From Thermodesulfobacteriota bacterium (GTDB taxonomy: Bacteria; Desulfobacterota; BSN033; UBA1163), in contig JASEIE010000098.1 of assembly GCA_030024065.1 (NCBI GenBank), positions 1 through 11,509 on the forward strand: 11,509 nt of DNA, written 5' to 3'. The translations under genes were made by a program, and so were the position numbers. This document shows positions 1,339 to 11,327 of this stretch, piece by piece. The notes beneath the pieces are model-generated. The model was not told the DNA's origin, did no database searches, and worked only from the letters and a program-made list of their open reading frames with translations. Position 1 is the stretch's first letter; each line of letters begins with the position of its first letter.

Positions 1339-1740
1339 ATGTATTCTTCCATTCATGTGATTCATACCATAGAGAGAGTTTCTCAAGACCTTTTGGAGCC
1401 CATGAAAGGATTTTCTACTGCAACCATCTCTGAGGCTTACGGTGGAAAAGGAGCACTCCCCCACACCATTAAACCTATCAGCACAGACATGAGGCTTTGT
1501 GGTCCTGTCATTCCTGTCATGACCCGCCCCGGGGACAACCTCATTTTGCATAAGGCAATTTATGTGGCTAAGCCAGGAGAGGTCTTGCTGGTTGGTACTT
1601 GCTCTTTTGTTGAGGCCGGATTCTGGGGAGGCATCATGATCGTAGCAGCCAGACAAAGAAAAATCGCAGGGTTGGTGACGGACGGTGGGGGATTATATAG
1701 AGGATGTTTTACCAGGGGAAGTTGTGGTTCTGGACAATAA
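1339..1740 (+). pseudogene. RraA-like / HMG aldolase-family gene, 3' truncated
   Basis: The first ~115 residues are the N-terminal half of an RraA-like protein (the family that includes 4-hydroxy-4-methyl-2-oxoglutarate/oxaloacetate lyases). It shows TATISEAYGGKGALP near the start, then GPVIPVMTRPGDNL, then KPGEVLLV and FWGGIMIVAARQRKIAGLVTDGG. The family motif should go on as DGxxRD, which supplies the active-site Arg and the metal-binding Asp. Here the sequence switches at about 1684 into a second gene in another frame, and this frame ends in unrelated codons at TAA 1738-1740. The product lacks the Arg/Asp and the C-terminal half, so it should be inactive. The start is well supported: GAGGGAGAT lies just upstream of ATG 1339. 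It probably belonged to the dehydratase/ubiD cluster. Confidence 0.7.
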
Positions 1741-2158: not shown

Positions 2159-2214
2159 ACCTTAACGTTGCATTGGAAAAGCGGCCAGATGTCCTTCCAA
2201 ACCTTTACAAAGTA
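2159..2214 (+). repeat. Partial third copy of the palindromic repeat
   Basis: This stretch reads ACCTTAACGTTGCATT, then AAGCGGCCAGATGT, then CCAAACCTTTACAAAG. It matches the outer ~55 bases of the repeats at 5261-5491 and 8989-9199 with only a few substitutions. It starts right after the stop of the rraA-like fragment and stops after ACAAAG; the other ~160 bases are absent. It lies in the 5' leader of the ubiD-like gene and supplies a spurious in-frame TTG at 2173. Confidence 0.8.
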
Positions 2215-2229
2215 GAGAAGAGGGTTTTT

Positions 2230-3597
2230 ATGAAAGAGAAGGATTTAAGAAGCTATCTTGAGAAGTTAGAAAAAGAGGCACCCGATGAGATCCAGTTTGT
2301 AAATAAAACCGTCAACAGCAAATTCGAACTGTCAGCCGTCCTCGCAAAGCTTGAGACTCAAGATCGATATCCAGCGGTATTATTCAATCAGGTGAATCAT
2401 TACAAGATGCCCGTATTGAGCAATCTCTTCGCTACACGAAAGAGGTTGGCCTTCGCAATAGGATGCGATGAAAAAAATCTAAACGAAGTCTATCGAGAAA
2501 GGGAGGACAATAGGATAGAACCCGAGCTGGTGGACACTGGACCGGTGAAGGAAATCATTCTAACCGGAGGTGATGTGGATCTGACGAAGCTTCCCATTGC
2601 TACTCATAATGAAAAGGATGCGGGCCCTTATATGACCGCAGGAGCCATGGTTTTAAAAGACCCCGAGACAAAAAAAAGAAATATCGGTATGTACAGGCAT
2701 ATGCTGCATGGTCCAAAACAGCTTGGCGTTCATTTTGCTGAAACCAGTCACTCCAATCTTATTTATGAAAAACATATCAGGAGGGGCAAGCCCATGGAGG
2801 CCGCGATTACCCTGGGTATGCATCCCGTTTTCTATCTCGGGGTATTGAGTTTTGTGCCCTTTGGGGTAGATGAATATACGATTGTAGGTGGATTGATGGA
2901 GGAACCCCTGAGACTGGTAAAATGTGAAGCCGTGGATCTTGAGGTGCCATCCATGGCAGAAATTGTTATTGAGGGGATCATCGATCCCCAAAAGCGAAAA
3001 GAGGAAGGACCTTACGGAGAGTTTACAACGCTCTATGGGAAACAGTTGATGAATCCGGTGGTCGATGTCACTGCCATTACGATGAGAAAGAACCCGATTT
3101 ATCTCGATATCTTTTCTGGGCATTTTGATCAACAACTGCTCGGAGGTACACCTCGACTGAGTTCGATCTACAAGGCCGTTCAAGTGGCCTGTCCTACTGT
3201 TAAGGATGTATTTATGCCTCCTTCAGGGTGTTGCCGCCTGACCTGCTATATTTCCATTGAAAAGAGGCACGAAGGGGAGGCAAAGAATGCTGTCTGTGCA
3301 GCCTTTGCTGCTGATCCATTTATAAAGTATGTGGTGGTGGTCGATTCGGATATCGATATATTCAGTGATTCAAGTATCTGGAGGGCCATCGCCACAAGGG
3401 TAGATGTGGATGAAGACGTTTTCATGATTAAGAACGCGAAAGGCCACCCATTGGATCCAACGGCAAAGAAAGGATTCCTGGTGGGCAAAGTGGGTATCGA
3501 TGCAACGAAACCTATTGCCGGCTATCCGGAAACCATCATCGTGCCCGGTTTTGCCGAACTCGACTTAAATCAATACTTGGAATCCAATAGATCTTAA
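2230..3597 (+). CDS. UbiD-family prenyl-FMN-dependent decarboxylase
   Basis: 455 residues, a normal length for the family. UbiD enzymes reversibly (de)carboxylate aromatic or alpha,beta-unsaturated acids using prenylated FMN, Mn/Mg and K in the cytoplasm. NIGMYR (N151, R156) and EGPYGE (E259, E264) reproduce the Asn/Arg and Glu-x4-Glu pairs that bind cofactor and act catalytically. GGTPRLSSIYKAVQ and a C-terminal PGFAELD stretch also fit. I chose ATG 2230, preceded by AGAGGG, over the in-frame TTG 2173, because the 19 extra residues are encoded by an inserted repeat. No UbiX-type prenyltransferase is in the window. The substrate is unknown; the neighbouring flavoprotein and TRAP transporter suggest catabolism of an imported acid. 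A fragment of a second, diverged ubiD lies at 6816-6908. Confidence 0.92.
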   Translation: MKEKDLRSYLEKLEKEAPDEIQFVNKTVNSKFELSAVLAKLETQDRYPAVLFNQVNHYKMPVLSNLFATRKRLAFAIGCDEKNLNEVYREREDNRIEPELVDTGPVKEIILTGGDVDLTKLPIATHNEKDAGPYMTAGAMVLKDPETKKRNIGMYRHMLHGPKQLGVHFAETSHSNLIYEKHIRRGKPMEAAITLGMHPVFYLGVLSFVPFGVDEYTIVGGLMEEPLRLVKCEAVDLEVPSMAEIVIEGIIDPQKRKEEGPYGEFTTLYGKQLMNPVVDVTAITMRKNPIYLDIFSGHFDQQLLGGTPRLSSIYKAVQVACPTVKDVFMPPSGCCRLTCYISIEKRHEGEAKNAVCAAFAADPFIKYVVVVDSDIDIFSDSSIWRAIATRVDVDEDVFMIKNAKGHPLDPTAKKGFLVGKVGIDATKPIAGYPETIIVPGFAELDLNQYLESNRS

Positions 3598-3641: not shown

Positions 3642-5267
3642 ATGCAAAAGCTCGATTGCGATATATTAATTATTGGTGGCGGGGCAGCAGGCAGCCGGGC
3701 TGCCTACGAAGCCAAAAAGGCCCATCCTGAATTGAGGGTCTTGATGGCGGTGGCAGGTGGCTTTGGTACAAGCGGCAGCACGAATTTGATGGCCTCTGAG
3801 AGTCTGGGGATCAATGCCCCTTTCAATTATATGGAAGATGGTGATAGCCCGGAGGTTTACTATCACGACATGATAGAAACGGGTGGAGGACTGGGCGATC
3901 CTTTGCTATGCAAGATTTTAGCTGATGAGGCCCGCGATCGTGTGAAAGAACTCGTCGCTTTGGGAATGAAATTTGACAGTAAGAACGGAAAAATCATCCA
4001 GCGTAAGCTATCAGGATGCACAAAGGCAAGGTCCTTGACCTGTGGTGGATCGACAGGCAAGGAAATCGTAAGGGTCTTAAAAACAGGGATTACAAAGTTA
4101 GGCGTGGAGGTACTTGAAAATGTCCGCATCCTTGATCTGGTTCAGGATGACCATGGAAGAATCTGTGGTGCAGTGGGGTTGGCCATAGGTAAACCCATTT
4201 TCATCGGGTCAAGAGCAGTTGTTCTGGCCAATGGCGGCGCTGGTAGAATTTTCCAACACAATGTTAACCCGATCTCAGTTGAGGGAGATGGTTGGTGCAT
4301 GGCTTACAGGGCAGGGGCCCGGCTGGTCAATATGGAGTTCTTTCAGATGGGTCCTGCTGTTTATAAACCTAACATCATGTTTATCATCCATAGCCACATG
4401 TGGCGCCTTCGCCCTCGCCTCACGAATGCCCTGGGTGAGGAGTTTTTGCCAAAATATTGTCCTCATGGGGTCGACCCAGCCGAAGTCATAGTTCTGAAGG
4501 CGATGTCTTACCCATTTTCGGTGCGGACTGCGGCTAAATACCTTGACATCGCCATTTTTAAGGAGGTGATGGATGGAAGGGGAACAGAATCTGGCGGAAT
4601 CTATTTTGATGTCACCCATGTAGGTCAGGATATTCTGTTGGAACGCGCTCCCATCACCTATAGGACGCTCAAGCAAGCTGGGGCTGATTTGGCCAAAGAG
4701 AGAATCGAGATCGGCATGGTCGTCCAGAATTTCAATGGAGGCATCTTCATTGATTCAAATGGCTTTACAGGGATTGAGGGACTTTTTGCTGCAGGAGAGG
4801 TTACAGGAGGAGTTCATGGTGCTGACCGACCCGGTGGAAACAATCTCATCGATACTCAGGTCTTTGGCTATAGGGCTGGCAAGGCTTCGGCAGAATATGC
4901 TGCTACCCAAGAGAAGAAGCCGCGGGAAATGGGTCTACCATTTGAATTTGAGCCTCTTACTCAAGAGGATGAGTTATTAATAGCTAAGAGTGCGGACCTT
5001 TATTATAGAAACCTGACAATTGTGAGGACCCAGAGCGGTCTTGAGGAAGTGCTTCAATTTATCGATTCGCATCGGGAGAATCGTAATTTCATGGTAAAAA
5101 ACAGACTTCTTCTGGGATCTGTATTGGCGACCGCGGCTCTAACCAGAAAGGAAAGTAGGGGAACCCATTATCGGGAAGACTTCCCTCAGAATAACCCGGC
5201 ATGGGTAAAAAAAATAATCATATTCCAAGGTAAAGAAGGGATTCCAGCGGCAGATATTTTAACCTGA
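3642..5267 (+). CDS. FAD-dependent fumarate reductase/SdhA-type flavoprotein
   Basis: 541 residues. The N-terminal dinucleotide-binding motif ILIIGGGAAGSRAAYEA (residues ~8-24) is followed by TCGGSTGKEI, by VVLANGGAGRIF near residue 195, and by the hallmark HGADRPGGNNL plus VFGYRAG of the FrdA/SdhA/AprA superfamily. A C-terminal helical domain of the SdhA type follows (NRLLLGSVLATAAL). Such proteins reduce or oxidise a C=C bond next to a carboxylate, with covalent or tight FAD. The usual RGEGG-like active-site stretch of fumarate reductases is replaced by a sequence around HMWRLRPRLTN, so the substrate probably is not fumarate. No iron-sulfur or membrane-anchor subunit adjoins it. It starts 44 bases after ubiD with a weak RBS and is likely co-transcribed. 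Its TGA stop lies at the outer edge of the left repeat. Confidence 0.88.
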   Translation: MQKLDCDILIIGGGAAGSRAAYEAKKAHPELRVLMAVAGGFGTSGSTNLMASESLGINAPFNYMEDGDSPEVYYHDMIETGGGLGDPLLCKILADEARDRVKELVALGMKFDSKNGKIIQRKLSGCTKARSLTCGGSTGKEIVRVLKTGITKLGVEVLENVRILDLVQDDHGRICGAVGLAIGKPIFIGSRAVVLANGGAGRIFQHNVNPISVEGDGWCMAYRAGARLVNMEFFQMGPAVYKPNIMFIIHSHMWRLRPRLTNALGEEFLPKYCPHGVDPAEVIVLKAMSYPFSVRTAAKYLDIAIFKEVMDGRGTESGGIYFDVTHVGQDILLERAPITYRTLKQAGADLAKERIEIGMVVQNFNGGIFIDSNGFTGIEGLFAAGEVTGGVHGADRPGGNNLIDTQVFGYRAGKASAEYAATQEKKPREMGLPFEFEPLTQEDELLIAKSADLYYRNLTIVRTQSGLEEVLQFIDSHRENRNFMVKNRLLLGSVLATAALTRKESRGTHYREDFPQNNPAWVKKIIIFQGKEGIPAADILT

Positions 5268-6639: not shown

Positions 6640-6781
6640 TTGCTCCCTAACCGGGAACGGGCATCTGGCAGGGATTTAACGGTCTTGCTGGGCCAGACTT
6701 AACCCTCAAAGATGAGGGCCGTGGCTTGAAGACTGCCTGCACCCGACTTTTTATTTGGGCGTCTTGCTCTTCGGTGAAGCT

Positions 6782-6800
6782 CCCCGTCCACAGGACGGGG
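6782..6800 (+). repeat. GC-rich hairpin, possibly an IS200/IS605-type end
   Basis: CCCCGTCC (6782-6789), loop ACA, GGACGGGG (6793-6800): a perfect 8-bp stem, flanked by AAG and CTT that extend the pairing past a two-base bulge, followed by a G run. Without a T run it is a poor terminator. Hairpins of this kind occur at the right ends of IS200/IS605 (TnpB-type) elements, so it may be a remnant of one, but no tnpB coding sequence is visible. Confidence 0.35.
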
Positions 6801-6815
6801 CTTGGGGGGCACTTG

Positions 6816-6908
6816 CCGGTCAAAGATGTGTTCATTTCGCATTCAGGTTGCTGCCGTTTGACCTGCTATGTTTCGATCGAAAAGCGCCATGAAGGCGAGC
6901 CCAAGAAC
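6816..6908 (+). pseudogene. Fragment of a second ubiD-like gene
   Basis: About 31 codons translate to PVKDVFISHSGCCRLTCYV followed by SIEKRHEGEPKN. The intact UbiD protein (residues ~324-354) has PTVKDVFMPPSGCCRLTCYI and SIEKRHEGEAKN at the same place. Nucleotide differences are frequent and mostly at third codon positions, so this derives from a diverged functional paralogue and not from a recent copy of the 2230-3597 gene. Homology ends abruptly on both sides and no start or RBS exists. It marks a deleted ubiD between the TAXI receptor and the TRAP permease genes. Confidence 0.85.
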
Positions 6909-6967
6909 GGAGGCTTGAACCCGTCAAATGGCCGATAAGCCTTCACCTTGAAAACATGGGGGGACAG

Positions 6968-8830
6968 ATGGTTGCTAATGCTAAGATTGCTAAGATTATT
7001 TTTTTGATTGCTTCCGTTTTCGCCATTTACGCTAATATTTTTATGCTTCTTCAGCCCATCGTTTTCAGGAGCATATTCTGGGCGCTGATAGCCATGGCCG
7101 GTTTCTTAGGGACGACCTCAGGCTTTTGGGGTGCAAAAGGCAAGTCAAAAACCAAATTGATGTCTTTGCTCGATGCTGTTTTGGCCATCCTTGTTGCCTT
7201 GAGCACGCTGCTGTTGGTTATAAGATGGGAAGGGTTTACTGCTGGCGTTCATGACGCTACACTCCTGGAAAACCTGGCCGCCGGGATCATGGTGGTTATT
7301 GTAATTCTGGCCACAGGCCGGCTGGTCAGTTGGGCTTTAGCCGGCGTAACCGTTTTGTTTCTTCTCTATGCCTTGTTTGGCGACTATGTCCCCGGCATTT
7401 TCGTCGGCAAGGGATACGAGTTGTCGCGGGTTTTGCCTTTCATGTTTTGGGATACTATGGGAATATACGGCCTCCCCATGTATATTGCCGCCAGCTATGT
7501 CATTCTGTTCGTTATATTCGGCCAATTTCTGCTCAGTTGCGGTGGTGAAAGATGGTTTATGGATGCGAGTTTCGCCGCTGTGGGCCCTTATCGAGGGGGC
7601 CCAGCCATGACCTCCGTCGTCACCAGCGCTGCATTTGGTATGATGTCCGGCTCTCCCGTAGCCAATGTAGTCACGACAGGCTCTTTCACTATCCCGCTGA
7701 TGAAGGAGATTGGTTATAAACCTCAAATCGCCGCAGCGATCGAGGCGGTGGCTTCGACTGGCGGCATGTTTACTCCACCGATTATGGGGGCGGCGGCCTT
7801 TCTGATCGCCGAATATACCAGCACTGCTTATTATAAGGTCGCCTTGGCCGCAGCCATTCCTGCCGCACTCTATTACGCCACCCTGCTCTGTATCGTTTAC
7901 CTCTGGGCGCGTAAAAGGGATCTGCCGGTTCTGAGCAAAGACCAGATTCCAAACCTGTCGGCAACCTTGAAAAATTACGGTCACCTCAGCCCGCCGATCT
8001 TCATCCTTTTGGCCATGATGCTGTCCGGTTGGAGCCTTTTGTGGTCTGCCTTTTGGTCGATCGTGGCCATCTTGGCTTTGTCCTTGCTGAGAAAGCACAC
8101 CAGGATGTCTATTCCTAAAATCATCGAGACCTTGGGAGAAGCAGCCAGAATTAGCATGCCGGTTGTCGTCGCCTGCGCCGCGGCAGGCATAATCTTCGGA
8201 GTGATTTCTTTGACCGGCTTGGGTTTCCGGGTCTCCTCAATGTTGCTTTTTCTGGCTGGGGACAGCAAATTCCTGCTGCTGCTCCTTACCATGATAAGCG
8301 CCATCGTCCTGGGATGTGCCATGCCACCGACCGCCGCATATATCATCTTGGCGGCGCTGGTCGTCACTTCTCTCTTGGAAATAGGCTTGCCTCCACTGGT
8401 GGCTCATATGTTCATCTTTTTCTTCTGCTCCATAGGACCGATCACTCCGCCCGTGGCCCTGGCCGCCTATGCAGCCGCCAGTATCGCCGACGCAGATCCC
8501 AATATCACAGGTTTTTGGGCTTTCCGGTTGGGACTGGCCGCTTTTATCCTCCCATTCGCTTTTGCTTATAATCCAGAGATACTGCTTGTCGGCTCAGCCT
8601 TAGAGATTACTTGGGCGGTTTTACGGGTATTGCTGGGGCTCTTACTAATGGCAGCAGTTTTTGAAGGCTTTTTGTTTAAAGGCACCCCTTGGCCGGCTCG
8701 AGCCCTGTTGGCAATTGCCGGGCTGGGCTTTTTCGTCCATCAGCCCTACGTTACCCTCGCCGCCTCGGTTCTGGCCTTTGTTTTGATATATCTAAACTAC
8801 CGAGGCTGGAAAAAGCAAAGCCCGGCGTGA
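6968..8830 (+). CDS. TRAP transporter fused permease (DctQM type, TAXI partner)
   Basis: 620 residues and very hydrophobic, with a short 4-helix DctQ-like N-terminal part fused to a large DctM-like part: the single-polypeptide arrangement that works with TAXI receptors. The signature block GGPAMTSVVTSAAFGMMSGS, then ANVVTTGSFTIPLMK and EAVASTGGMFTPPIMGAAAF, is typical. A second half-repeat GCAMPPTAAYIILAALV followed by FCSIGPITPPVALAAYAAAS supports the two-fold elevator domain. It would import the receptor-bound substrate by sodium or proton symport across the inner membrane. I chose ATG 6968, with a G run (6958-6963) just upstream; ATG 6956 is in frame but has no RBS. Its TGA stop is followed by ~160 bases with nothing recognisable and then the right repeat. 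Confidence 0.93.
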   Translation: MVANAKIAKIIFLIASVFAIYANIFMLLQPIVFRSIFWALIAMAGFLGTTSGFWGAKGKSKTKLMSLLDAVLAILVALSTLLLVIRWEGFTAGVHDATLLENLAAGIMVVIVILATGRLVSWALAGVTVLFLLYALFGDYVPGIFVGKGYELSRVLPFMFWDTMGIYGLPMYIAASYVILFVIFGQFLLSCGGERWFMDASFAAVGPYRGGPAMTSVVTSAAFGMMSGSPVANVVTTGSFTIPLMKEIGYKPQIAAAIEAVASTGGMFTPPIMGAAAFLIAEYTSTAYYKVALAAAIPAALYYATLLCIVYLWARKRDLPVLSKDQIPNLSATLKNYGHLSPPIFILLAMMLSGWSLLWSAFWSIVAILALSLLRKHTRMSIPKIIETLGEAARISMPVVVACAAAGIIFGVISLTGLGFRVSSMLLFLAGDSKFLLLLLTMISAIVLGCAMPPTAAYIILAALVVTSLLEIGLPPLVAHMFIFFFCSIGPITPPVALAAYAAASIADADPNITGFWAFRLGLAAFILPFAFAYNPEILLVGSALEITWAVLRVLLGLLLMAAVFEGFLFKGTPWPARALLAIAGLGFFVHQPYVTLAASVLAFVLIYLNYRGWKKQSPA

Positions 8831-9247
8831 GAAGCCATTGTTGTCATCTATAACAGCCTCTACAACAAATAATATCCTGGATCAAAATGGCAGGGTCTGG
8901 CCTGATATTGCTGTTCATCTTCGGAATAAAAATTTTTTCTCCAAGAAGAGTAACGGAAGGGGAGTGTCTCGGCTAATCAAGGCTTGCATAAACCCGACAG
9001 TTGCTTAAAAAGTTACCAATAAGCGGCCAGGTGTGCTGAACAGCGGCACCTTTGAACGTTTAACCACAGAGTTCCCAAACATTTTACAAAGGCCACTTTA
9101 GGTGACATGGATTGTTATCCATAAAACTTCCTATAATAAACCCGCTTTGTAAAGGTTTGGAAGTACATCTGGCCGCCTTTGCAATGCAACGTTAAGGTAA
9201 ATTCTTTAACAGGAAAGGCGCGAGATTCTTTAAGAGCCGAAACTAAG
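8831..9247. other. Gap between permease and MFS gene
   Basis: Bases 8831-8988 carry no gene, terminator or repeat that I can see. Bases 8989-9199 are the right repeat. Bases 9200-9247 are unique sequence directly before the MFS gene and hold no convincing promoter. Whatever promoter and 5' end the MFS gene originally had may have been displaced by the repeat. Confidence 0.5.
8989..9199 (-). repeat. Right, inverted copy of the palindromic repeat
   Basis: It is the reverse complement of 5273-5491, from AACCCGACAGTTGC at the inner end to GCAACGTTAAGGTA at the outer end. Its centre keeps the perfect ATGGAT-TGTT-ATCCAT palindrome (9107-9122), which is mutated by one base in the left copy. Relative to the left copy it lacks a 10-base stretch (TAAAGGTTTT-like) and has three extra bases. 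The outer end reaches a TTG at 9179 that opens the long frame of the MFS gene. Confidence 0.85.
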
Positions 9248-10480
9248 GTGACTCCAAAATCACTCAAACTCTTTTCAATCTTCTTTGTTCTCTCCGCCCT
9301 CTTTGTCCTTTCCATGTTCTACCGCGTCTCCAATGCCGTCATCGCTCCCAATCTCATCCAGGATCTGAAACTCAGTGCCCAAACCCTCGGCATTCTGGGG
9401 GGGGCCTATTTCTACTCCTTTGCCATCCTTCAGATTCCGGTGGGGCCGATGCTCGACCGAATCGGTCCCCGGATCATCATCTCCTCATTCTCCTTGATCG
9501 GAGCCCTGGGTGCCTTTCTCTTTGCCTCAGGAGAATCACTTACGGCTGCCTTTCTGGGAAGAATTCTGATCGGCGTGGGAATGGCATCCGTTCTGATGGG
9601 GGCTATGAAGATCTTTGTATTAAGGTTTCCTCCGGAGAAGTTCGCCACCCTCGTTGGCATTCTCCTCTCGGTCGGGACACTGGGAAATATCTTTGCCACC
9701 TCTCCTCTGGCTTTTCTCACTTCCGCAATCGGGTGGAGGATGACCTTTATCTTCGCAGGTGGAATGACAGCCCTTTTTGCTTTCCTCATCTTCTGGGTTT
9801 TGGGAGGAGAGATGAGGGAAGCGGAAACTTTCCCCTCCCCCTTACCCAAGCCGGAAATAACCGTTCTTCAGTCAATGCGAATGATTCTCAAGTCCCTTGC
9901 TTTCTGGCAGATAGGAGCTGTTGCCTTCTTTAGATATGGAACCTTCGTTGCCCTTCAAGGTTTGTGGTTGGGTCCTTACCTCATGGAGATTAAGGGATAT
10001 TCACCTGTTCAAACGGGTAATGTGCTCATTCTGCTGGCCATTGGAATGATTGTGGGAGGCCCTATCGCAGGCCGTCTCTCCGATCGTACCTTTCGTTCGA
10101 GGAAGGGTGTGGCCCTGGGGGGATTGAGTCTTTATTGCGTGAGTCTTTTTCTTTTGATCGGAGTGCTTAAAATCCAGGCCCCTTTCTGGTACGCACTCAT
10201 CTTCTTTTTCATTGGGTTCTTCGGTAGCTTCGGTATGCTGATCTACTCCCATGCCAAGGATCTCTTTCCCGCTGCGATCTCAGGAACGGTCATGACCCTG
10301 GTCAACTTCTTCACCATGGCAGGGGCGGCCGTTTTCATGCCAGTCCTCGGGAAGATCATCGAATCCTTTCCCCGGACGAACCACGCCTATCCTGCCGAAG
10401 CCTACCATTTCTCCTTCCTCATCTGTTTTTTAGGGATGAGCGCAAGCGTGATTTTTTACGCTTTCTCCAGACAGAGATAG
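9248..10480 (+). CDS. Major facilitator superfamily transporter
   Basis: 410 residues with about 12 predicted membrane segments. The cytoplasmic loop between helices 2 and 3 carries motif A (GPMLDRIGPR, residues 66-75), and the matching loop of the second half has GPIAGRLSDRTFRSRKG. This is an inner-membrane secondary transporter. The substrate cannot be told from sequence; carboxylate or drug transport are both possible. The frame is open back to TTG 9179, but those first codons lie in the inserted repeat. GTG 9248 gives a sensible short N-terminus before the first helix (LFSIFFVLSALFVLSMF), though its RBS is poor; ATG 9314 would cut into that helix. The original start may have been lost to the repeat. 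The gene ends one base before a strong terminator. Confidence 0.85.
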   Translation: MTPKSLKLFSIFFVLSALFVLSMFYRVSNAVIAPNLIQDLKLSAQTLGILGGAYFYSFAILQIPVGPMLDRIGPRIIISSFSLIGALGAFLFASGESLTAAFLGRILIGVGMASVLMGAMKIFVLRFPPEKFATLVGILLSVGTLGNIFATSPLAFLTSAIGWRMTFIFAGGMTALFAFLIFWVLGGEMREAETFPSPLPKPEITVLQSMRMILKSLAFWQIGAVAFFRYGTFVALQGLWLGPYLMEIKGYSPVQTGNVLILLAIGMIVGGPIAGRLSDRTFRSRKGVALGGLSLYCVSLFLLIGVLKIQAPFWYALIFFFIGFFGSFGMLIYSHAKDLFPAAISGTVMTLVNFFTMAGAAVFMPVLGKIIESFPRTNHAYPAEAYHFSFLICFLGMSASVIFYAFSRQR

Positions 10481-10555
10481 ATAGGGCGTTGGGGAGATGA
10501 GGAGATAGGGAGATTTCACCCTATCACCCTACCTCCCTATCTCCCTATTATTTTT
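10481..10555 (+). terminator. Long hairpin terminator after the MFS gene
   Basis: The left arm (10481-10512) and right arm (10517-10548) pair at about 24 of 32 positions around a 4-base loop, followed by TATTATTTTT. The arms consist of irregular GATAGGGA/GGAGATAG-like 8-mers, so the hairpin probably grew by short tandem duplication. The T run at 10551-10555 supports rho-independent termination on the + strand. Confidence 0.7.
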
Positions 10556-10611: not shown

Positions 10612-10640
10612 TTGATTTAACCCGGCTTGAATGCTATTTC
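10612..10640 (+). promoter_or_regulatory. Weak sigma-70-like promoter for the small membrane protein
   Basis: TTGATT (10612-10617) and TATTTC (10635-10640) are 17 bases apart, downstream of the MFS terminator and 18 bases before the next start codon. Matches to the consensus are partial. Some promoter is expected here because the preceding hairpin should stop read-through. Confidence 0.3.
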
Positions 10641-10657
10641 TTAATAAGGAGGAAGTT

Positions 10658-10819
10658 ATGATTTTAAGGGTCTTTTTAGGTTTGATCGTTGGTGGCTTGG
10701 CCGGTTTTATTTTGAGCTACCTTACCCGGGGTATCGGGAGTTCCTGAGCCCTTACCTGCAACCCCTATGTCAGCGTCCCTTTGGGCGCTATATTAGGGTT
10801 AATCTGGGCCTTAGGTTAA
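10658..10819 (+). CDS. Putative selenocysteine-containing DUF6132-like membrane protein
   Basis: ATG 10658 has a strong AAGGAGG (10646-10652). The frame reads MILRVFLGLIVGGLAGFILS, then YLTRGIGSS, an in-frame TGA (10745-10747), then ALTCNPYVSVPLGAILGLIW and ALG, with TAA at 10817-10819. With TGA as Sec the product is 53 residues with two membrane helices and U30-x3-C34 between them. In DUF6132-type small proteins, as I recall them, the linker has GCSSGTCxITSNP, followed by a small-residue helix with YGAxxG. Sec aligns with the second Cys (U-A-L-T-C-N-P against C-x-I-T-S-N-P). The conserved reading after the TGA argues against chance. A stem-loop with a bulged U follows at SECIS distance. A thiol/selenol redox role at the membrane is plausible but unknown. 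The alternative is a nonsense-mutated gene, since other genes in the window are damaged. Confidence 0.6.
10772..10789 (+). promoter_or_regulatory. Candidate bacterial SECIS stem-loop
   Basis: AGCG, bulged T, CCC, loop TTT, GGG, CGCT: seven base pairs in two blocks with a single bulged U on the 5' side. This resembles the upper part of the E. coli fdhF SECIS (GGU-U-GCA-GGUC-UGC-ACC). The apical loop starts 32 bases after the TGA at 10745-10747, inside the usual 16-37 range. The loop lacks the G expected among its first bases, which is the main weakness. Confidence 0.45.
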
Positions 10820-10857
10820 GGCTGAAACTAATCTATTTAGTAAAGGAGGTTTCACTT

Positions 10858-11145
10858 ATGGCAAATCCAGAAAAGGTTGTCTTAAAAGTTGTTTCCATCA
10901 AAGGGACCTGTGCCGCTGGACATTATGTCGGCCAGGAATTTGATCTGAGCCAGGATTTCATCCTTGGAATGTCAGGAGATCCCCGGGCCATCTGCCCTTC
11001 TGCATTTCATGCAATCTTCCCCTCGTGGCGCGTGCTCCGGCACGGAGGAGAGTATCCATGGGAAGAGGATAAAGATAAAACCACCATCGCCTGCCCCGAT
11101 CCTTTTAACCCTGTTGTGATGGAACTCCGGAGAGTCAGAGAGTAA
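10858..11145 (+). CDS. TIGR04076-family small cysteine protein
   Basis: 95 residues. It shows VVSIKGTCAAGHYVGQEFDL at the N-terminus, AICPSAFHAIFPSWRVLRHG in the middle, and PWEEDKDKTTIACPDPFNPV before a C-terminal VMELRRVRE. This pattern of three conserved Cys (GTC, ICP, ACP) with His residues fits the TIGR04076 family, whose function is unknown. The cysteines could bind a metal or serve redox chemistry. The start at ATG 10858 is firm: AAAGGAGG at 10842-10849. It follows the putative selenoprotein by 38 bases with no terminator between, so the two are probably co-transcribed. It is cytosolic, with no signal peptide or membrane segment. Confidence 0.85.
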   Translation: MANPEKVVLKVVSIKGTCAAGHYVGQEFDLSQDFILGMSGDPRAICPSAFHAIFPSWRVLRHGGEYPWEEDKDKTTIACPDPFNPVVMELRRVRE

Positions 11146-11256: not shown

Positions 11257-11327
11257 GGCAAAGCCTGCCTGCCGGTAGGCGGGGTCTCTGACCCGGAGGG
11301 CAAAGCCTGCCTGCCGGTAGGCAGGGG
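11257..11327. repeat. Two copies of a palindromic GC-rich repeat
   Basis: Two ~28-base copies (11257-11284 and 11299-11327) share GGCAAAGCCTGCCTGCCGGT followed by AGGC. Each forms a hairpin with CCTGCCT pairing to AGGCAGG (AGGCGGG in the first copy) around GCCGGT. The spacer of 14 bases is unrelated. Such interspersed palindromes are frequent in many uncultivated bacterial genomes. The position in the leader of the next gene could affect its expression. Confidence 0.75.

What the first reader, a model, noticed from the sequence alone, without database searches (positions are those of the whole stretch)
10658..10819. Probable undescribed selenoprotein: DUF6132-like with Sec at a conserved Cys
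An ORF with a strong Shine-Dalgarno contains one in-frame TGA. Reading it as Sec gives a complete 53-residue two-helix membrane protein with U-x3-C in the inter-helix linker, and the residues after the TGA (ALTCNPY...GAILG) continue the family-like pattern. I am not aware of a described Sec form of this small family, though I cannot search.
Basis: partly seen in the sequence, partly recalled or inferred. Interest (0 to 1): 0.88.

Follow-up and report, generated by a model that had tools for sequence, protein, structure and literature searches.

The report
Tiny membrane selenoprotein, unlisted family
A 53-residue bacterial membrane protein very probably carries selenium, because a stop-like TGA codon stands exactly where related proteins have a cysteine and is kept in dozens of related genomes; its biochemical job is still unknown.

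Summary
Observation confirmed; the selenoprotein reading is strongly supported for the family, though selenium was not measured and the window's own genome is not held. Window 10658-10819 has one in-frame TGA (codon 30). TGA stands at this codon in 41 distinct places including the window; the one exception is a decayed fragment with TGT. Of 67 database proteins 54 have Cys there, 4 W, 9 are fragments. pN/pS is 0.36 before and 0.34 after the TGA. Downstream RNA helices co-vary, but the window's own hairpin breaks one SECIS rule. All 25 carriers checked have selB or tRNA-Sec; selB is common in the phylum anyway (353 of 395). The family is DUF6132 at profile level; the window protein alone misses that Pfam model. 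Sec forms fall in three groups on a poorly resolved tree. The window's group has U-x3-C instead of C-x4-C. In one order trxA lies directly upstream in 7 of 7 carriers. The family is absent from a 119-entry catalogue; 27 members hit no NCBIfam selenoprotein model. Function, thioredoxin-linked membrane redox, is inference.

The parts
10612..10640 (+). putative promoter TTGATT-17 nt-TATTTC
   Evidence: alignable upstream of close relatives; not listed by the consensus scan; inferred
10646..10652 (+). Shine-Dalgarno AAGGAGG, 5 nt before the ATG
   Evidence: sequence
10658..10819 (+). selenoprotein gene, 53 residues with TGA read as Sec
10745..10747 (+). Sec codon TGA (residue 30)
   Evidence: TGA in all genomic relatives found but one decayed fragment; Cys at this column in 54 of 67 database relatives
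10757..10759 (+). Cys34 (U-x3-C), putative resolving cysteine
   Evidence: present in 24 of 27 rows of A3, the other three being group B, which has Cys before the Sec instead
10759..10801 (+). SECIS-like RNA: helix 10759-10764/10796-10801 enclosing a 7-bp hairpin 10772-10778/10783-10789 (loop CUUU, 31 nt after the UGA)
   Evidence: co-variation of the outer helix in 21 sequences; hairpin in the folds of the window; the window's loop lacks the consensus G and its C10759-A10801 pair is broken
10807..10823 (+). conserved 7-bp hairpin spanning the TAA stop codon (GGCCTTA GGT TAAGGCT)
   Evidence: 97.3% of cells paired in 21 sequences; penultimate Leu codon TTA in 22 of 22; its exact core found only at this gene or its decayed copy in 17 genomes
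9179..10480 (+). MFS transporter, 178 nt upstream, same strand
   Evidence: a homologue lies within 200 nt upstream in 7 other loci
10858..11145 (+). TIGR04076 family protein, 38 nt downstream
   Evidence: not among the recurrent neighbours printed

Best explanation
A selenoprotein gene. The UGA at codon 30 is decoded as selenocysteine by the SelB/tRNA-Sec system, helped by an RNA structure that starts 11 nt downstream inside the coding region. The product is a 53-residue helical-hairpin membrane protein of the DUF6132 superfamily in which Sec replaces the family's conserved cysteine and pairs with Cys34 (U-x3-C) in the linker between the helices. Most likely it cycles between selenol/thiol and selenenylsulfide, taking electrons from thioredoxin and passing them at the membrane surface to an oxidised substrate (peroxide, disulfide or persulfide). 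Supported by sequence evidence: TGA conservation, Cys homologues, purifying selection past the TGA, co-varying RNA, Sec machinery in relatives' genomes. Inferred: Sec rather than another residue in the window's own host, membrane insertion, the selenenylsulfide, the thioredoxin partner, the substrate. Separate estimates: encodes Sec 0.97; thiol/selenol redox role 0.7; thioredoxin as direct reductant 0.45.
For: TGA at this codon in 5 of 5 confirmed genome-contig loci, in 26 of 27 matches in 395 genomes, in 13 of 13 DUF6132 matches in the same 395 genomes, in 15 of 15 and 7 of 7 matches in one family and one order (most of these places are the same as). Of 67 database relatives 54 have Cys at the column. 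Eight records of 29 to 38 residues end just before the Sec, and a 35-residue record, Glov_2727 of Trichlorobacter lovleyi, is only the part after it. pN/pS 0.36 before and 0.34 after the TGA over 231 pairs. Co-varying helices: 15 cells changed on both sides, shuffled mean 5.6, 0 of 500 shuffles; 5 cells, shuffled mean 1.3, 0 of 500. The window's genes at 3642-5267 and 6956-8830 end with TGA, so TGA is also a stop there. trxA directly upstream in 7 of 7 carriers of one order, thioredoxin reductase 48 nt downstream in another genome, superoxide dismutase, WrbA or rubrerythrin in others.
Against: No direct evidence of selenium. The window's own genome is not held, so its Sec machinery is untested. 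selB passes the cut-off in 353 of 395 genomes of the phylum, so its presence in carriers says little; the selB and tRNA-Sec models also ring weakly in all 14 control genomes. The window's SECIS-like hairpin fails the published rule of a G in the first two loop positions, and the 45-nt stretch with it is not unusually stable (30 of 200 shuffles fold as well); by my enumeration 12 of 25 group-A sequences meet all rules, only 7 of them with the hairpin at the same place, and the window does not. The weaker co-variation measures do not stand out: further pair types 77 of 500 shuffles as high and 334 of 500; pairs changed on both sides 47 of 500. Shuffles ignore relatedness. trx linkage is confined to one order; around the window the neighbours are an MFS transporter and a TIGR04076 protein. 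The one Cys-type locus read, on a Riemerella plasmid, lies next to a heavy-metal-associated domain gene, which points to metals rather than thioredoxin.
Confidence: 0.88

Rival explanations
1. The protein binds or moves a soft metal or metalloid (mercury, copper, arsenic, selenium) across or along the membrane with its U/C pair, like small Mer-type transporters; Sec only raises affinity.
For: A Cys-type DUF6132 gene on a Riemerella plasmid lies 2 nt after a heavy-metal-associated domain gene, with a TonB receptor beyond it on the other strand. The window gene and 7 other loci follow an MFS transporter on the same strand. A Sec-containing putative mercuric transport protein family is already catalogued.
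Against: None of the ten neighbour proteins of Sec genes that I scanned is an HMA-type metal-binding protein, and among them are thioredoxin, thioredoxin reductase, superoxide dismutase, WrbA and rubrerythrin; the other neighbours were not scanned, so absence is not shown. Two helices alone could make a transporter only as an oligomer.
Confidence: 0.25
2. TGA is a true stop: the gene makes a 29-residue single-helix peptide and what follows is untranslated.
For: Several database records stop there (P0059, P0060, P0064, P0065, P0067, 29 residues).
Against: Purifying selection on amino acids after the TGA equals that before it; the stretch after the TGA continues the pattern of Cys-type homologues.
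Confidence: 0.01
3. TGA is read as tryptophan or another residue by an altered code or a suppressor tRNA.
For: Four database proteins show W at this column (P0002, P0004, P0021, P0022), as a caller using code 4 would write; I could not see their DNA.
Against: No genomic relative found here has TGG at the codon; 54 of the 58 database proteins with a residue there have Cys; two window genes end in TGA; Sec machinery occurs in relatives' genomes.
Confidence: 0.02
4. The gene is mainly a selenium-responsive RNA switch: UGA stalling or termination lets the stop-codon hairpin or the alternative UGA-containing helix form and controls downstream expression or mRNA decay; the peptide is secondary.
For: Hairpin over the stop codon kept with wobble pairs and one paired change; its exact core found only at this gene or its decayed copy in 17 genomes; the same 5' arm can also pair with the UGA region (fold; 95.2% of cells paired).
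Against: Downstream genes differ between loci; the UGA-region helix shows no co-variation above shuffles (107 of 500 as high); I see no such hairpin by eye in the group-B genes; the protein is under purifying selection.
Confidence: 0.07

Closest known systems
DUF6132 (Pfam PF19628), Cys-type
   Same: Glycine-rich helix pair with a conserved Cys at the Sec column, most followed by xxTxNP-like residues and a second glycine-rich helix
   Different: The 54 Cys-type proteins seen have C-x4-C. The window's group has Sec, lacks the -5 Cys and has a Cys at +4. The window protein alone gives no PF19628 match at E up to 10.
Catalogued prokaryotic selenoprotein families (119 families/subfamilies in PMC13188914, Table 1)
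   Same: In-frame UGA at a position where homologues have Cys, downstream RNA structure, Sec machinery in the lineage
   Different: No entry is named DUF6132 or carries a UxxxC motif; none of 27 members scanned hit a selenoprotein model of NCBIfam at E up to 1, including the models listed there for unnamed proteins such as DG, DF, GOS_B and GOS_C.
Putative mercuric transport selenoprotein (PF02411) and YeeE/YedE selenoprotein (PF04143)
   Same: Transport families with Sec in that catalogue; that they are membrane proteins is recalled
   Different: Different Sec motifs (C/SxxU; GUxSG) and different Pfam families; neither is in the list of Pfam matches for the 27 members, of which 25 of 26 families were shown.

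Membership tests
Bacterial selenoprotein | In-frame UGA conserved, with Cys at the column in non-Sec homologues | tested here: met
Bacterial selenoprotein | Coding selection continues past the UGA | tested here: met
   pN/pS 0.36 before, 0.34 after, 231 pairs, uncorrected and not independent
Bacterial selenoprotein | Sec machinery in the same genome | tested here: inconclusive
   Window genome not held. Carriers: selA 4 of 4; selB-class E of 1e-95 or better in 23 of 25 and tRNA-Sec over 70 bits in 21 of 25, each of the 25 having at least one. Of the 11 genomes, 10 have such a selB match. selD not tested.
Bacterial selenoprotein | Published bSECIS consensus: G in the first two loop positions, 16-37 nt spacing, upper stem 4-16 bp, energy of -7.5 or lower | tested here: not met
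   Window: 7-bp stem, spacing 31 and energy -10.9 are met, loop CUUU fails the G rule; 12 of 25 group-A sequences meet all by my enumeration. Group B: loop GGUC at spacing 19 in 13 of 13, energy not computed. The review says some elements break the rules.
Bacterial selenoprotein | Selenium shown in the protein | not testable with these tools
   needs labelling or mass spectrometry
DUF6132 (PF19628) | Sequence matches the Pfam model | tested here: not met
   Window protein alone: no match at E up to 10. 17 of 27 aligned Sec relatives match at E up to 1, best 9.9e-12.
DUF6132 (PF19628) | Profile-level homology to annotated members | tested here: met
   Profile A3, led by the window protein and holding three group-B members, finds PF19628-annotated proteins, best E 3.6e-9 (that one, P0004, has W at the column), best Cys-type 4.0e-8
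DUF6132 (PF19628) | C-x4-C linker motif | tested here: not met
   Window has U-x3-C and lacks the -5 Cys; group B has C-x4-U or C-x5-U

The most novel reading that the evidence does not exclude
DUF6132 is a hot spot for Cys-to-Sec exchange: a minimal, two-helix selenol relay at the membrane, re-invented with Sec at least three times, in which the resolving cysteine of the window's group moved from five residues before Sec to four after it, fed by thioredoxin; and its message carries, besides the SECIS, a second RNA hairpin over the real stop codon that takes part in UGA decoding or in quality control of read-through.
Probability: 0.25. Interest if true: 0.82.

Novelty: new variant of a known kind. 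Interest (0 to 1): 0.62.

Why it matters
It adds a selenoprotein family that gene callers cut at the UGA: databases hold stubs that end just before it, W-bearing translations and an orphan C-terminal half. At 53 residues with a single linker, Sec chemistry sits in an almost minimal membrane scaffold, with Cys and Sec forms to compare. It gives a functional lead (thioredoxin linkage) on DUF6132, on which my search found no relevant paper. A cultured bacterium, Trichlorobacter lovleyi, probably carries a group-B form (inferred from its C-terminal half, P0068), which would make it testable.

Tried and rejected
Pfam and NCBIfam with the window protein alone: no DUF6132 match. Rfam: no match in the window at gathering scores. 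Solved structures by sequence: none at E up to 1; by fold: no match at E 0.001 or better, best 5.0, chance-like for a helical hairpin. A code-4 genome was rejected because two other window genes end in TGA. The UGA-region helix (columns 5-10 with 72-77 of A5) shows no co-variation above shuffles. selB presence as a discriminating test was dropped as most of the phylum has it. A search of viral contigs was not possible with A3 and was not tried otherwise. A tree of 95 rows on 55 columns forces three Sec/Cys changes by starred branches, but the tool warns of too few columns; the four W proteins were labelled Sec by me.

Rows left out before counts: A3 leaves out L028 (partial), L035 (decayed) and L010, L011, L013, L014 (copies of L001-L004). 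A5 leaves out L020 (two bases inserted in the hairpin arm) and L030-L036; L090-L092 were fetched later. The pN/pS set leaves out L005, L028 and L029 and the divergent L030-L036. The Leu-codon count is of 22 group-A genes. The tree leaves out proteins under 45 residues and duplicates. Neighbours were compared in 37 places; L005 and L090-L092 were not among them. Family scans of neighbours covered ten proteins chosen by me, seven of them and none else from those loci again with NCBIfam or Pfam (repeats six).

Full report
Observation. The frame at 10658-10819 is as described: one TGA at codon 30, TAA at the end, Shine-Dalgarno AAGGAGG at 10646-10652. In close relatives the DNA aligns from a TTGATT-17-TATTTC-like element through the gene; the promoter scan did not list that element.

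Relatives. With a profile of these six (A2), 25 of 395 genomes of one phylum matched; of 27 matches 26 had one TGA, at this codon, and one, a decayed extra piece in G217, had TGT. With the Pfam DUF6132 model, 11 of the same 395 genomes matched, 13 matches, all with one TGA; these form a second group (B), and only two of the 11 genomes are among the 25. No Cys form was found in these 395 genomes by either search. In the family of G001, 15 of 17 genomes carry the gene, all with TGA, three places being new; in the order of G224, 7 of 8, all with TGA, none new. Counting each place once: 26 + 10 new + 3 new + L005 + the window = 41 TGA places.

Cys homologues. Searches of the protein database (the last two scored only the 7990 and 7995 candidates sharing most words) gave 67 proteins. 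At the Sec column 54 have Cys, 4 have W and 9 have no residue. All 54 have C-x4-C in that alignment. The four W proteins group with Sec forms and are most simply TGA read by a code-4 gene caller; I could not see their DNA. Of the nine fragments eight stop just before the Sec and one, Glov_2727 of Trichlorobacter lovleyi SZ, holds only the part after it. P0025 has Cys at -5, at the column and at +4, an intermediate between the two layouts. Group B is C-x4-U or, in three members, C-x5-U. The window's layout, U-x3-C, is in 24 of the 27 rows of A3, the other three being group B.

Selection. Over 231 pairs of 22 group-A genes, pN/pS is 0.36 before and 0.34 after the TGA. The values are uncorrected for multiple hits, and pairs are not independent.

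RNA. Group A, 21 sequences: helix CAACCC/GGGUUG (10759-10764/10796-10801) is 96.0% paired, three of its six pairs with changes on both sides; the inner three pairs 85.7%; the stop-codon hairpin 97.3%. Whole structure: 15 cells changed on both sides against a shuffled mean of 5.6 (0 of 500 as high), 5 pairs so changed against 3.0 (5 of 500), further pair types 13 against 11.9 (77 of 500). The window itself breaks one pair (C-A). Alone, the window's 91 nt from before the UGA past the stop fold better than most shuffles (z -2.55, 2 of 200 as good), but the 45 nt with the inner hairpin do not (z -1.12, 30 of 200). Group B, 13 sequences: a hairpin with loop GGUC begins 14-15 nt after the UGA, 93.8% paired, 5 cells changed on both sides against 1.3 (0 of 500), 2 pairs against 0.9 (47 of 500), further types 4 against 3.6 (334 of 500). 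Shuffles do not keep relatedness, so these are not probabilities. A GGUC loop is, from recall, like that of E. coli fdhF. Against the published bSECIS rules (review PMC13188914, section 5 read) group B fits on loop and spacing. By my enumeration, which allows one mismatch and folds the cut-out piece, 12 of 25 group-A sequences fit all rules, 7 of them with the hairpin where the window has it; the window does not, for lack of a loop G. The review says that some putative elements break the rules.

Stop-codon hairpin. The penultimate codon is Leu TTA in 22 of 22 group-A genes, against 32 of 199 at other Leu positions (related sequences, so not independent). Where the stop is TAG (L022) or TGA (L026) the stem is kept by a wobble pair; in L005 both sides of one pair change; in L020 a two-base insertion moves the arm but keeps pairing (by eye). 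The exact core pattern occurs 15 times in 14 of 17 genomes, each time at this gene or its decayed copy; the reversed control pattern occurs twice. No terminator-like site was found there. I do not know its role.

Machinery. selA in 4 of 4. Of the 25 genomes, 23 have a selB-class match at 1e-95 or better (G085 and G090 do not) and 21 have tRNA-Sec over 70 bits (G004, G027, G060 and G355 do not; the tool counts 22 of 25 over the gathering score, G004 lying on it); each has at least one. Of the 11 genomes, 10 have such a selB match; tRNA-Sec was not sought in the nine that are not also. But 353 of 395 genomes pass the selB cut-off, so this is permissive, not discriminating; both models also ring weakly in all 14 controls, over the cut-off in 2 (selB) and 5 (tRNA-Sec). 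selD was not tested, and the window's genome is not held.

Neighbours. 37 places including the window were compared. In 7 loci, all of one order, a thioredoxin gene lies directly upstream on the same strand, gaps 13-24 nt in six and overlapping in L088, where the gene's own start is missing (one of them, L070, tested; the rest by BLAST cluster). L073: thioredoxin reductase 48 nt downstream. L054, L056, L060: a superoxide dismutase-like gene 27 nt downstream, then WrbA on the other strand (L056 tested). L064: rubrerythrin 37 nt downstream. L083 and, by eye, L078: a CGGC-domain protein just upstream. L061, L062, L063, L065: a galT-like gene downstream (named by recall). The window and seven other loci: MFS transporter within 200 nt upstream. 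Most group-B loci, and the window, show no recognised redox neighbour. One Cys-type case, on a Riemerella plasmid, follows a heavy-metal-associated domain gene.

Tree. 95 proteins, 55 columns: three changes between Sec and Cys, three forced by starred branches, 3-4 in bootstraps; group A is one set and group B two. With few columns and an arbitrary root, direction is not shown; Cys to Sec three times is the plain reading if Cys is ancestral.

Structure. Two helices 2-26 and 36-52, pLDDT 79, pTM 0.53; no credible fold match, none by sequence in solved structures.

Print. PMC13188914: outline, section 5 and parts 1-2 of 3 of section 7 (with Table 1) read; 119 families/subfamilies, none named DUF6132. 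PMC12013277: outline and the section on new selenoproteins read, none by name; its figures were not seen. DUF6132 gave one paper, from its title about DUF6; none of the 30 papers listed in a later search holds the word. Other searches: listings only. The library holds open-licence papers only; supplementary tables were not read. NCBIfam of June 2026 gave no selenoprotein model for 27 members, three of them group B, scanned with Cys for Sec.

Verdict. The TGA is very probably a Sec codon and the family appears uncatalogued in what I searched. Function is inferred from neighbours and chemistry.

Noticed in passing
window 1339-1740 and 1685-2158: Two overlapping frames on the + strand look like one RraA-like gene (name from recall) split by a frameshift in the overlap.
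   Followed up: no
window 6726-6938: A short frame repeats a stretch (VKDVF..SGCCRLTCY.SIEKRHEGE) of the UbiD-type gene at 2173-3597: a partial duplicate between the NMT1-like and DctM-like genes.
   Followed up: no
window 10488-10550: By eye, an inverted repeat of GGGAGATAGGGAGA-like units between the MFS gene and the selenoprotein gene; may end the MFS transcript.
   Followed up: no
window 11263-11322: By eye, a GCCTGCCTGCCGGTAGGC unit, partly palindromic, occurs twice.
   Followed up: no
G217 contig C52, L035:102-173: A second, decayed piece of the gene with TGT at the Sec codon and Ile at the +4 position, keeping the stop-codon hairpin sequence.
   Followed up: partly
protein P0025: DUF6132 protein with Cys at -5, at the Sec column and at +4, intermediate between the two layouts.
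   Followed up: partly
protein P0068 (Glov_2727): Trichlorobacter lovleyi SZ has a record that is only the part after the TGA of what looks like a group-B selenoprotein (near-identical to L042's C-terminal part); its upstream DNA was not seen.
   Followed up: partly
L088: In G177 the thioredoxin frame runs into the selenoprotein gene, whose start is missing: an internal deletion or an assembly fault.
   Followed up: no
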